A DNA stretch of 64,000 nt, taken from assembly GCF_000255115.2 (NCBI RefSeq), contig NC_018068.1, positions 4,807,977 to 4,871,976 on the forward strand. The letters run 5' to 3'. The notes under the pieces were generated by a model. The model did no database searches, was not told where the DNA came from, and saw only the letters and a list, made by a program, of their open reading frames with translations. Origin of the DNA: Desulfosporosinus acidiphilus SJ4. GTDB lineage: Bacteria > Bacillota > Desulfitobacteriia > Desulfitobacteriales > Desulfitobacteriaceae. The first letter of the stretch is position 1, and every line of letters begins with the position of its first letter. A program made the translations under genes and the position numbers. This document shows positions 1,501 through 45,772 of the stretch, piece after piece.

Positions 1501-1562
1501 CAACACCATTGTTTACACTATCAGACCCTCATGCCGCCAAGCGGCACCTTCAAAGAAAGAAC

Positions 1563-1678
1563 GTATAACTTTCAGTTGAATACTCCATGAAGAGTTAATA
1601 CGCCCTAGGACAGTGCCTGCAAGGATTCTAATTCGTGAAAAGACCGTGTTCGTGGACGCAGCTAAGTTTTCTTTAGCT
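1563..1678 (+). repeat. Leader copy of a three-copy intergenic element
   Basis: This stretch lies in the 5' leader of the GntR operon, about 75 nt after the predicted transcription start. It shares blocks, in the same order, with the reverse complements of 18026-18116 and 44620-44702: GTATAAC, a spacer, GTTG with TAC/ACT, GAAGAGTTAAT or GAAGGGCTAAT, CTAATTCGTG, AAGAC with GTGT, and AGCTAAGTTTTCTTTA. This copy carries about 33 extra bases between the GAAGAGTTAAT and CTAATTCGTG blocks. The first blocks can form a short hairpin (GTATAAC with GTTGAATAC), and AGCTAA with TTAGCT forms a second one just before the gntR ribosome site. The function is unknown. Confidence 0.5.
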
Positions 1679-1711: not shown

Positions 1712-2086
1712 ATGAACATCATTATTTCAAATTCTTCTTCAGAACCCATCTATCAGCAAATTGTCATGCAACTAAAGCATCTGATTCTCACCGGAAAACT
1801 TTCCGAAGCCGAAGCACTGCCTTCTATCCGCTCCTTAGCAAAAGAATTGCAAATCAGCGTGATTACTACTAAGAGAGCTTATGAAGACCTGGAAAGAGAA
1901 GGCTATATAGAAACGGTCGCCGGAAAAGGTTCGTTTGTTGCCGCTCAGAATCAAGAATTATTACGCGAACAACGCCTGCGTGTCGTAGAGGAAAAGGTTG
2001 CTGAAGCTATCAATGCTGCTAAAATCGCAGGTTTATCTCGAAACGAGCTTCTCGATATGTTTAAGCTGCTCTATGAGGATAGCTGA
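1712..2086 (+). CDS. GntR family transcriptional regulator, YtrA type
   Basis: This is a 124-residue DNA-binding repressor. Residues 10-77 form the GntR winged helix (PIYQQIVMQLKHLIL, then LPSIRSLAKELQISVITTKRAYEDLEREGYIETVAGKGSFV). Only a short C-terminal helical tail follows (residues 80-124), as in the YtrA subfamily, which lacks a large effector domain. The ATG at 1712 follows an AGGAAG site with a rather long spacing. YtrA-type genes usually head operons for ABC transporters, as here. The operator palindrome at 1466-1500 is the probable binding site, and the same protein would control the two downstream genes. The inducer is unknown; in relatives such operons respond to cell-wall-active antibiotics. 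Confidence 0.92.
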   Translation: MNIIISNSSSEPIYQQIVMQLKHLILTGKLSEAEALPSIRSLAKELQISVITTKRAYEDLEREGYIETVAGKGSFVAAQNQELLREQRLRVVEEKVAEAINAAKIAGLSRNELLDMFKLLYEDS

Positions 2087-17971: not shown

Positions 17972-18025
17972 ACTCTCACGCTCCCACTTACAACTTATGT
18001 ATTAAGCAGGAGTTGCGTGAATATT

Positions 18026-18116
18026 CTTTAGGTTAGTTGCACTGATGCTAGATGGCGAGGACATGTCTTCACACGAATTAACTCTTCTTGCAGTAGACAA
18101 CCAATGGTTATACTTT
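18026..18116 (-). repeat. Second copy of the three-copy intergenic element
   Basis: The core at 18059-18113, read on the minus strand, gives AGTATAACC, ATT, GGTTGTCTACT, GCAAGAAGAGTTAATTCGTG and GAAGACATG. These blocks align with 44646-44702 and with the GntR leader at 1563-1678. AGTATAACC and GGTTG-TACT can pair as a hairpin. It lies just past the fabZ terminator. Confidence 0.55.
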
Positions 18117-18121
18117 TCAGA

Positions 18122-18166
18122 TAGTATAATAAAGAGCCAGGAGGCTGCTCTGCTGCTCCCGGCTCT
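18122..18166 (-). terminator. Terminator after fabZ
   Basis: On the minus strand AGAGCCGGGAG pairs with CTCCTGGCTCT (one mismatch) around a 12-base loop, covering 18133-18166, and is followed by TTATTATAC. It ends fabZ transcription 25 bp past the stop codon. Confidence 0.8.
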
Positions 18167-18190: not shown

Positions 18191-18628
18191 TCAAATAGCT
18201 GCATTCTTCTCGAGAAAAAATTTCAGAGTGCCTTCGACGGCCAATTCTTCCCCTACATAGGCTTTTCCCTTAGCAACGCCAAACGTTTTACGAAGTTTTA
18301 ATACTTCAACTTCTAAACGCAATTGATCGCCAGGGATAACTTGCCTTCTGATTTTCACTTCATCCAAACCGGCAAATAACCCTAAGAACCCAGCGTATTC
18401 AGGCATTTTCAATATTGCAACTGCCCCAACTTGGGCTAAAGCTTCAATAATTAAAACCCCCGGCATAATTGGATGCCCCGGAAAATGTCCTTGAAAGAAA
18501 GGCTCATTAATTGTTACATTTTTTAGCCCTACAGCCCGTTTCCCTTCCTCTAATTCTACGATGCGATCAACCAATAAAAAGGGATACCTGTGCGGAATAA
18601 TATCTTGGATCTCTTGACTTGAAAGCAC
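18191..18628 (-). CDS. fabZ: 3-hydroxyacyl-[acyl-carrier-protein] dehydratase FabZ
   Basis: FabZ removes water from 3-hydroxyacyl-ACP in the fatty-acid elongation cycle. From GTG at 18628 (AAGGAGG seven bases upstream) the protein has 145 residues, the normal size; the frame upstream to 18688 adds unlike sequence. Catalytic His48 lies in GHFPGHP and Glu62 in [21 protein letters not shown] at the start is diagnostic. In Bacillus fabZ (ywpB) likewise lies near mbl, away from other fab genes. Confidence 0.96.
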
Positions 18629-18775
18629 TAAAACTCCTCCTTGAATCTTACCGGATGAAACACTTGCAGAAATGTACATGTTTATCATATGATGAGAATC
18701 AGATATTCTTCTTCATAAGATGAGAGTAATACCTTTGTCATACCTAGTATACCTAAGTTTCTAATTGAAGGGAAG

Positions 18776-44619: not shown

Positions 44620-44702
44620 TTAAAGAAAACTTAGCTAGCCCTTGAAGACACTGTCTTCGCACGAATTAGCCCTTCTTGCAGTATACAACCAAAGGTTATA
44701 CT
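44620..44702 (-). repeat. Third copy of the intergenic element
   Basis: Read on the minus strand, the blocks are GTATAACC, TTT, GGTTGTATACTGCAAG, AAGGGCTAATTCGTG, GAAGACAGTGTCTTC and AGCTAAGTTTTCTTTA. They match 18026-18116 and the GntR leader at 1563-1678. GTATAACC and GGTT-GTATAC pair as a hairpin and GAAGACAGTGTCTTC is itself palindromic. It lies 84 bp past the glpX stop and 115 bp before the rpmE start. Confidence 0.6.
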
Positions 44703-44785
44703 TTCTGATCGTATTACAAAACCGCTGCAGCCCAAAGGGCAATATCCGACAGTTATTGAGGTATCTTCTCCTAACTTGAAATGAA

Positions 44786-45772
44786 TTATACGTTTGTATC
44801 AAGACAGCCTTTCATGGCATATTGAGGTTTCTTGTCAAAACGATGCCGGGCTTCGATAAAACGAACGGTCCCCGACTTTCCTCGAATGACAACTGTATGG
44901 GTTAAAGCACCTTTTGGAGTAAAAGTCACCCCTCGTAAAAGTGAGCCCTCTGTGATTCCCGTTGCTGCGAAAAAGACATCGTCACTTCTCACTAAATCAT
45001 CCATTGTCAATAATTTGTGAACATCTTCAATCCCCAAAGCCTTTGCCCGGGCGACATCCTCTTCATTTTCCGGCCACAAGCGTCCTTGCATCTCTCCGCC
45101 CATGCAGCGCAAAGCAGCAGCAGCGAGAACCCCTTCCGGTGCTCCGCCGATTCCCATCATCATATCAACACCTGTATCTTCAAAAGCACAGGCAACAGCC
45201 GGAGAAACATCTCCATCAGTTATGAGGCGTACTCTTGCACCGCAATTGCGCACTTCTTGAATTAATTTTTGATGGCGGGGGCGATCTAAGATAACAACCG
45301 TCATTTCAGCCATACTCTTTCCCAAAGCTTTCGCTACATTGGCGACATTCTCCGCCACAGGTGCATCAATATTAATTTTTCCTGCAGCTGCTGGCCCAAC
45401 CGCAATTTTGTCCATGTACATATCCGGAGCATGCAATAAACACCCTTTCGAAGCAATAGCCACAACAGCAATCGCTCCGGCAACCCCTTTGGCTACAATA
45501 TTTGTCCCTTCCAGAGGGTCTACAGCAACATCCAATTCCGGGCTTTCTCCATTACCCACGCGTTCTCCGATATAAAGCATGGGGGCTTCATCCATTTCCC
45601 CTTCACCGATTACTACTGTCCCATCCATATGAATCGTGTCAAATACCGCCCGCATTGCTTCAACCGCAGCGTTGTCCGCAGCTTCTTTATCCCCTAATCC
45701 TACCCATCTCGCCGATGCCAAGGCCGCAGCTTCAGTTACCCTTGCAAATTCCATGGTAAGTTCACGTTCCAT
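44786..45772 (-). CDS. glpX: Fructose-1,6-bisphosphatase class II
   Basis: GlpX hydrolyses fructose 1,6-bisphosphate in gluconeogenesis. The 328 residues contain GEGEMDEAPMLYIGE, DPLEGTN (metal-binding Asp/Glu set) and GIGGAPEGVLAAAALRCMGG, all family signatures. ATG at 45772 follows AAAAAGGGGG. It follows a transaldolase gene, as in Bacillus. Confidence 0.97.
   Translation of the reverse strand: MERELTMEFARVTEAAALASARWVGLGDKEAADNAAVEAMRAVFDTIHMDGTVVIGEGEMDEAPMLYIGERVGNGESPELDVAVDPLEGTNIVAKGVAGAIAVVAIASKGCLLHAPDMYMDKIAVGPAAAGKINIDAPVAENVANVAKALGKSMAEMTVVILDRPRHQKLIQEVRNCGARVRLITDGDVSPAVACAFEDTGVDMMMGIGGAPEGVLAAAALRCMGGEMQGRLWPENEEDVARAKALGIEDVHKLLTMDDLVRSDDVFFAATGITEGSLLRGVTFTPKGALTHTVVIRGKSGTVRFIEARHRFDKKPQYAMKGCLDTNV

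What the first reader, a model, noticed from the sequence alone, without database searches (positions are those of the whole stretch)
1563..1678. Three-copy intergenic element with a conserved hairpin, found in a 5' leader and after two minus-strand genes
The same ordered blocks (GTATAAC, GTTG..TAC/ACT, GAAGRGYTAAT, CTAATTCGTG, AAGAC, AGCTAAGTTTTCTTTA) occur at 1563-1678, in reverse at 18026-18116 and at 44620-44702. A GTATAACC/GGTT..TAC stem can form in each copy although the bases differ, which hints at RNA structure. One copy lies in the GntR operon leader, the others lie past fabZ and glpX. It is not any riboswitch class I recognise. It may be a small mobile repeat or a structured RNA. The alignment was by eye.
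Basis: partly seen in the sequence, partly recalled or inferred. Interest (0 to 1): 0.7.

Follow-up and report, generated by a model that had tools for sequence, protein, structure and literature searches.

The report
Mobile repeat that lands behind terminators
A short, protein-free piece of DNA has spread to more than a hundred places in this bacterium's chromosome and occurs in nearly all sampled relatives, mostly landing just behind the stop signals of genes and carrying a stop-signal-like end of its own; how it moves is unknown.

Summary
The three look-alikes are real and are the tip of a large family. A covariance model from 26 copies finds 128 matches (E<=0.01) in the own genome and matches in 42 of 45 family genomes. 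The genus is Desulfosporosinus by named hits. The element has no conserved ORF, is usually 94 or about 140 bp (up to about 214) and is modular: TACTATC, a 5' hairpin, one or more cores (GCAAGAAGRNYTAAYNCGTG plus the palindrome CGAAGACAGTGTCTTCG), an optional spacer and a covarying 3' hairpin ending TTTTCTTTA. Its 5' end sits directly behind a hairpin plus T-tract in 69 of 115 copies, against 1.9% of random intergenic points; its own 3' end meets the same rule in 70 of 115, and tandem copies begin there. Four filled/empty comparisons at three sites fit clean insertion without target duplication. The mobile-repeat reading holds; the regulatory-leader reading fails. It is not a classical MITE (no terminal inverted repeats or duplication), REP or group II intron, though introns in relatives use similar landing sites. 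No mobilising enzyme was identified. An IS1111-type insertion sequence sits at one identical internal point in four copies.

The parts
1550..1675 (+). Copy 1 (decayed, two core-like units, 3' end AGCTAAGTTTTCTTTA), 36 nt before the GntR gene; opposite to the leading-strand orientation of most copies
   Evidence: R1 match 41.4 bits, E 3.3e-9; sequence
1515..1549 (+). ACACTATCAG followed by a palindromic module (CCCTCATGCCGCCAAGCGGCACC); a TATCAG-start with a similar CCCCCCATG module lies behind two other copies in the held sequence
17985..18127 (-). Copy 2, 5' half intact, 3' half lost or diverged
   Evidence: R1 match 76.6 bits, E 2e-20; sequence
18131..18166 (-). Terminator-like hairpin and T-rich tail behind the FabA-like (fabZ) gene; copy 2 begins directly behind it
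   Evidence: AGAGCCGGGAG..CTCCTGGCTCT then TTTATT, read; flank also
44621..44714 (-). Copy 3, short form (94 bp), both ends intact
   Evidence: R1 match 89.3 bits (in the training set); sequence
44714..44740 (-). Weak hairpin and TTTTG stretch between glpX and copy 3 (GCCCTTTGGGC..GGTTTTGTA)
   Evidence: folded
18191..18688 (-). FabA-like (fabZ) gene upstream of copy 2
   Evidence: Pfam PF07977 E 1e-33
44786..45772 (-). glpX fructose-1,6-bisphosphatase gene upstream of copy 3
   Evidence: Pfam PF03320 E 6e-148
1712..2086 (+). GntR-family regulator gene downstream of copy 1
   Evidence: Pfam PF00392 E 9e-14

Best explanation
It is a small non-autonomous mobile element of Desulfosporosinus and its family. 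It inserts precisely, in fixed orientation and without detectable target duplication, mostly just 3' of intrinsic terminators (hairpin plus T-tract). Shown here: dispersal, presence through the family, the landing rule, clean insertion in four comparisons at three sites, modular build and a covarying 3' hairpin. Inferred: it is moved in trans by an enzyme that recognises a folded hairpin followed by a T-rich strand. I think a hairpin in single-stranded DNA, as on the lagging-strand template, is likeliest (about 0.45), an RNA intermediate of group-II-intron kind less so (about 0.2), with the rest left to an unrecognised route. Because the element's own 3' end is a terminator-like hairpin with a T-tract, an insertion leaves the upstream gene's terminator in place and makes a new landing site, which would explain tolerance by the host and the tandem copies.
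For: Copies: 128 matches in the own genome; 42 of 45 genomes of the family, 8 of 9 genera; 29 of 29 genus genomes by BLAST; all 32 named stretches with the relatives' core are Desulfosporosinus. Landing rule: hairpin plus T-tract directly before 69 of 115 copies, against 1.9% of 4080 random intergenic points, and 1 of 115 on the opposite strand at the other end. In the 52 left flanks with an exact TACTA, a T-run and then A (56%) or G (35%) precede it. Own 3' end meets the same rule in 70 of 115, and in 28 of the 28 best copies. Tandem copies begin at that end. Filled versus empty: the alaS T-box terminator in G006 against G003 and G012; the same terminator in G014 against G023; G006 67109 against G003 and G012; G006 4178255 against G012. 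All fit an inserted unit TACTA..CTTTA (TACAG..TCTAA in one). About 4 of 46 copies examined in three other species share a site with one of the 115 own copies. 3' hairpin: 13 of 14 pairs with changes on both sides, 88.2% of cells paired.
Against: No enzyme was found; copy number correlates significantly with neither Y1 transposase hits (rho 0.23, p 0.13) nor reverse transcriptase hits (rho 0.26, p 0.08) (copy numbers capped at 72 per genome). 46 of 115 copies fail the strict terminator rule; 26 fail a relaxed one, which also passes 17 of 115 at the other end. 25 of 115 overlap a crude ORF call of 70 aa or more by over half. The empty site of G006 4178255 has no clear terminator, and the third relative there (G003) does not align cleanly. 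Poly-T tracts leave a base or two of the junctions ambiguous, the G014/G023 pair differs by one T, and at 67109 a duplicated TA cannot be told from none. Leading-strand excess over genes is slight (104 of 115 against 271 of 329; Fisher p 0.05, binomial p 0.02; terminus assumed at 2.6 Mb). One copy in G004 (rplT) lies on the strand opposite to the terminator.
Confidence: 0.85

Rival explanations
1. A cis-acting regulatory RNA (riboswitch, leader or attenuator) present in many operons.
For: Conserved core and covarying hairpins; one copy lies in the GntR leader and one in an alaS T-box leader.
Against: Downstream gene same strand in 70, opposite in 39, none called in 6; close relatives lack the element in the same conserved leader; no Rfam family matches. 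Gene functions of the neighbours were not surveyed.
Confidence: 0.04
2. A small RNA or 3'-UTR module kept by selection at gene ends (for example a backup terminator or mRNA 3' protection), spread by ordinary recombination.
For: 3' end is terminator-like; the rplT site is filled in G003, G006, G012 and in the own genome.
Against: Most positions compared are not shared between species; the core palindrome is conserved as sequence with little covariation, which a terminator does not need; internal module loss is seen between near relatives.
Confidence: 0.08
3. A non-autonomous element moved by an IS200/IS605-type or RAYT-type HUH transposase (a special case of the single-strand route).
For: No target duplication seen, subterminal hairpins, one orientation; Y1 matches in 37 of 45 family genomes.
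Against: 8 of 45 genomes have no Y1 match and all 8 carry copies, G010 with 63; copies near the long Y1 gene in 1 clear and 1 weak of 20 loci; no fixed four- or five-base left target (the target rule of these elements is recalled).
Confidence: 0.25
4. A retro-moved RNA that uses a group II intron reverse transcriptase in trans (a bacterial SINE-like element).
For: Group II introns in the same family start directly behind similar terminators in 4 of 6 loci looked at (L317, L318, L321, L322); no target duplication; RT matches in 43 of 45 genomes.
Against: The own genome's only RT match is an intron protein that by my reading has an HNH-like end and a shortened start, although 28 copies there are 91% identical on average; G042 has copies and no RT match, but that genome is 76% complete; no group II match in the element.
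Confidence: 0.2

Closest known systems
YPAL/RU-2 of Yersinia (about 168 bp)
   Same: Intergenic, similar size, internal inverted repeats, targets that span or lie next to dyad symmetry, recent mobility inferred from filled and empty sites (passages of PMC2229807)
   Different: YPAL makes 3-26 bp target duplications and its ends lack TA; here none was found and the unit begins with TA. No sequence comparison was made
BCR repeats (bcr1) of the Bacillus cereus group
   Same: 100-400 bp, up to 130 copies, group-restricted, mobile by a possible recombination-like route (passages of PMC6542083)
   Different: BCR mobility is tied to repeated TTTAT motifs; here the landing rule is a terminator hairpin plus T-tract. 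No sequence comparison was made
Group IIC introns
   Same: Insert at DNA motifs of intrinsic terminators (passage of PMC4424553); group II introns behind terminators were seen at 4 loci of the family
   Different: Ribozyme with reverse transcriptase, about 1.9 kb in L322; the element has neither
REP/REPIN elements with RAYT transposases
   Same: Intergenic palindromes thought to be mobile in trans; REPs too are targeted by an IS1111-type insertion sequence (passages of PMC3733652 and PMC11187229)
   Different: REPs are 20-40 bp with a GTAG or CGTC tag; no link to RAYT-like genes was found
MITE-like repeats (RUP, Correia/NEMIS, ERIC)
   Same: Under 200 bp, no protein, TA at the ends (passages of PMC2229807)
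   Different: No terminal inverted repeats and no target duplication found

Membership tests
MITE | Terminal inverted repeats | tested here: not met
   5' TACTATCAG and 3' TTTTCTTTA are not inverted copies of each other (alignment of 26)
MITE | Target site duplication | tested here: not met
   Four filled/empty comparisons at three sites; a TA duplication stays possible at one (67109)
MITE | Small, non-coding, multi-copy, mobile | tested here: met
REP/REPIN | 20-40 bp palindrome with GTAG or CGTC tag | tested here: not met
   Multi-hairpin unit of 94 bp or more
REP/REPIN | Copies flank a RAYT gene | tested here: not met
   1 clear and 1 weak match in 20 loci around long Y1 genes, by my rough estimate no more than copy density gives
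Group II intron (IIC) | Insertion behind an intrinsic terminator | tested here: met
   69 of 115 by the strict rule
Group II intron (IIC) | Domain V ribozyme and reverse transcriptase | tested here: not met
   No Rfam match in the window at gathering score; in L007 only the stretch upstream of the element matched anything at E<=10; the unit is too short for an RT
IS200/IS605-derived element | No target duplication, subterminal hairpins | tested here: met
IS200/IS605-derived element | Fixed tetra- or pentanucleotide target at the left flank (recalled) | tested here: not met
   T-run then mostly A or G, in 52 flanks
IS200/IS605-derived element | Y1 transposase present where the element moves | tested here: inconclusive
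   8 genomes with copies have no Y1 match, but loss after movement is possible
Riboswitch or cis-regulatory leader | Constant position ahead of genes on the same strand | tested here: not met
   Downstream gene 70 same, 39 opposite
Known Rfam family | Match to a curated model | tested here: not met
   0 in the window at gathering score; none over the element in L007 at E<=10
YPAL/RU-2 | Sequence homology to YPAL | not tested
   No YPAL sequence was fetched

The most novel reading that the evidence does not exclude
A bacterial parasite family with its own mobility route: a protein-less element that reads a structural signal (terminator hairpin plus T-tract), inserts without duplicating bases, and rebuilds the same signal at its end, so that each copy is both an insertion and a new landing pad. 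In its strongest form it is a SINE-like element moved through an RNA or single-strand intermediate by an enzyme not yet tied to any known transposon class, and is in turn the programmed target of an IS1111-type insertion sequence.
Probability: 0.3. Interest if true: 0.8.

Novelty: new variant of a known kind. Interest (0 to 1): 0.6.

Why it matters
It suggests that intrinsic terminators are a shared niche for unrelated mobile DNA (group II introns and this element, in the same bacterial family) and that an element can carry its own copy of the niche. It gives a countable system of filled and empty sites in a genus with cultured species, in which the mobilising activity of orphan small repeats, an old open question, could be tested. 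For annotation, it accounts for more than a hundred mostly intergenic hairpin regions in this genome and tens in many relatives that could otherwise be taken for regulatory RNAs.

Tried and rejected
Riboswitch or leader: rejected on gene orientation and empty sites. Known RNA family: none. RAYT link: 20 loci around long Y1 genes hold 1 clear and 1 weak copy. Y1 or RT copy number as predictor: no significant correlation in 45 genomes. An autonomous long form: among the copies I read, the only protein-coding insert was the IS1111-type element, which sits at one fixed internal point and so looks like an invader, not the engine. IS110-like movement of the repeat itself: no duplicated core at the 4178255 junctions. 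Spread by plasmids or phages: no match in 72,556 plasmid and 50,697 phage records or, by exact pattern, in viral contigs (records near the window's genome may be left out there). Strand bias as proof of replication-linked insertion: too weak over gene bias. A strict automatic terminator finder found 43 of 115 (0.7% expected) and missed many by eye; I then used the hairpin-energy plus T rule, run on controls as well. TA as a target duplication: possible at 67109, not at 4178255. The guide-RNA reading of the IS is weak: one 10-base exact match to the target, reached by 1 of 300 shuffles, and no more than chance on the other strand.

Literature: ten searches listed no paper on this repeat that I recognised; they cover open-licence PMC papers only, and I opened passages of five, so this is not proof that none is in print.

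Counts: the 115 copies are the rows with at least 30 bits; weaker rows of the 128 were left out, among them the alaS copy of the own genome. A few of the 115 are halves of one IS-split copy or overlapping opposite-strand matches (2227546/2227601, 3319911/3319946), so distinct copies are somewhat fewer. Gene calls are simple ORF calls of mine. The background is 16 of the 20 random 20-kb stretches drawn (four were left out to fit the cap) plus the window. The 46 foreign copies are the best-scoring ones, not all, of three genomes. Alignment A2 is fitted to model R1, so its pair counts lean towards the structure; one of its 66 rows is a weak antisense match. The 26 rows of A1 and the 64 sources were chosen by me. 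Copy numbers are limited to 72 scored candidates per genome. The 43 of 44 palindromes come from sequence mostly fetched around copies.

Full report
What is there. BLAST of copy 3 against the own genome gave 66 matching pieces at E<=10, many far below 1e-10, and the 13-base core pattern gave 42 hits against 2 for the reversed control. A covariance model (R1, 140 positions, 37 pairs) built from 26 copies finds 128 matches at E<=0.01 in the own genome. They include the three window copies, at 1550-1675 (+), 17985-18127 (-) and 44621-44714 (-). Copy 3 was in the training set; copies 1 and 2 were not. The genome is 4,991,181 bases in contigs of 4,926,837, 60,447 and 3,897. From recall these sizes fit Desulfosporosinus acidiphilus; no call names it. 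The genus rests, where all 32 named stretches that carry the relatives' form of the core are Desulfosporosinus, and, where all 29 genus-mates carry copies.

Anatomy. The unit runs from TACTATC to TTTTCTTTA. In order it has a 5' hairpin (AGTATAACC..GGTTGTATACT here, AGTATAAAC..GTTATATACT in relatives), a core GCAAGAAGRNYTAAYNCGTG with the palindrome CGAAGACAGTGTCTTCG, a spacer such as TCTTCTAGCATAAGTGCAACT, and a 3' hairpin followed by TTTTCTTTA. Long forms are about 140 bp; single copies reach 193 and 214. The 94 bp short form lacks the spacer and most of the 3' hairpin. At rplT, G003 has a 176-base form with two cores, while its near relatives G006 and G012 have 94 bases at the same site; deletion between the two cores would explain the short form. 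Cores can be tandem (L309, L310). In the held 686 kb, mostly fetched around copies, 43 of 44 exact palindromes lie in R1 matches. On 66 matches, nearly all from other genomes, the pairs fit far better than slid or shuffled controls; 13 of 14 pairs of the 3' hairpin changed on both sides. The core palindrome hardly varies, and the helix drawn around the core is weak, with 52.7% of cells paired.

Where it lands. In the own genome, 69 of 115 copies are directly preceded by a hairpin and a T-tract on the same strand, against 1.9% of 4080 random intergenic points and 1 of 115 on the opposite strand at the 3' end. Among the 28 best copies it is 21 of 28. A stricter finder gave 43 of 115 against 0.7% expected. 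In the 52 left flanks with an exact TACTA, a T-run and then usually A or G precede it. The upstream gene has the same strand in 85 copies and the opposite in 29; the downstream gene 70 and 39; 25 copies overlap a crude ORF call. Orientation follows the leading strand in 104 of 115, while 271 of 329 genes do so, so most of the bias is that of the genes.

Mobility. Of 46 copies examined in G006, G010 and G028, about 4 share a neighbourhood with one of the 115 own copies; a fifth, at alaS, meets a weaker own copy. Filled and empty sites: (1) the terminator of the alaS T-box leader reads GAGATTATTTTTTTTATTGAA in G003 and G012 and GAGATTATTTTTT[TACTATTAG..TTTCTTTA]TTATTGAA in G006; alaS there is 98-99% identical. 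(2) The same terminator is filled in G014 and empty in G023, one T apart, with flanks 97-99% identical. (3) G006 67109 is filled, G003 and G012 empty; G003 fits exactly, and a duplicated TA cannot be excluded here. (4) G006 4178255 is filled and G012 empty, here without a clear terminator; G003 does not align cleanly. No duplication is needed in any. The alaS terminator is also filled by other variants in G010, G019 and the own genome, so this site was probably visited repeatedly. A fifth group, around G006 1673004, has filled and empty members but consists of paralogous loci, so I do not count it.

Own landing site. By the same rule, the element's own 3' end is a hairpin plus T-tract in 70 of 115 copies and in 28 of the 28 best. 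Tandem copies start directly at that end, for example 3865956 behind 3866047 and 42088 behind 41977. I infer that each insertion can make the next landing site and leaves the host gene's terminator intact.

What moves it. Not known. Group II introns in the same family start directly behind similar terminators in 4 of the 6 RT loci I looked at (L317, L318, L321, L322; not seen in L319 and L320). Rfam confirmed intron parts in L320 and L322, the only two of these six that I scanned; the class C label is mine, and the literature says IIC introns choose terminators (passage of PMC4424553). But the own genome has one RT match only, an intron protein with a domain V behind it and, by my reading, an HNH-like end and a shortened start. 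Y1 transposases are missing from 8 of 45 genomes, all of which carry copies, G010 with 63; long Y1 genes are not flanked by copies. Neither gene class tracks copy number significantly. I lean to recognition of a hairpin in single-stranded DNA, because the rule is structural and no bases are duplicated, but this step is inference.

A guest in the guest. The same insertion sequence sits at the same internal point (CTAGCATAAG^TGCAAC) at four places: both junctions were read near 3.035 and 4.515 Mb, one junction each near 41 kb and 2.930 Mb. Its protein is a DEDD transposase of the IS110 family, with subterminal inverted repeats and a long downstream noncoding region, as described for IS1111 types whose seekRNA picks the target (passages of PMC11187229). 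A 10-base stretch of that region is complementary to the target, which 1 of 300 shuffles reached; the other strand shows nothing above chance. This is suggestive, not proof.

Relation to what is known. It works like a MITE, like YPAL in targeting dyad symmetry, and like a IIC intron in its choice of site, but it fails defining tests of MITEs (terminal inverted repeats, duplication), REPs (size, tag, RAYT link) and introns (ribozyme, RT). I therefore call it a new variant of a known kind: a small non-autonomous mobile repeat with a terminator landing rule and a self-made landing site. Papers were seen as passages only (PMC11187229, PMC4424553, PMC3733652, PMC2229807, PMC6542083); others only in search listings.

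Noticed in passing
own genome C3 about 41 kb, 2.930 Mb, 3.035 Mb, 4.515 Mb (loci L076, L107, L110, L131 with L024): IS110-family (IS1111-type) insertion sequence at one identical point inside four copies of the repeat (both junctions read in two, one in each of the others); a possible guide match in its downstream noncoding region; one copy (3.03 Mb) has a broken transposase gene.
   Followed up: partly
L317, L318, L321, L322: Group II introns starting GTGCG directly behind intrinsic terminators in the same bacterial family (4 of 6 RT loci looked at).
   Followed up: partly
own genome 104919, 817928, 1573048, 2243866, 2275664, 2404593, 4637126, 4675893: Copies whose 3' half is replaced by other repeated modules (variants of GATAAGCGGACGAGCTTATCG and of GTGTGGATTGGC..GTGTCTCT), which look like a second mosaic repeat family.
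   Followed up: no
window 1515-1549; own genome 3262241(-), 3348535(-): A module beginning CCCCCCATG or CCCTCATG joined to the same TATCAG start as the repeat, at three places in the held sequence.
   Followed up: partly
L272 (G004, rplT): A copy inserted on the strand opposite to the rplT terminator, between the stop codon and the hairpin: an exception to the orientation rule.
   Followed up: no
L309, L310: Core units in tandem (up to three) followed by a GT-repeat, suggesting slippage within copies.
   Followed up: no
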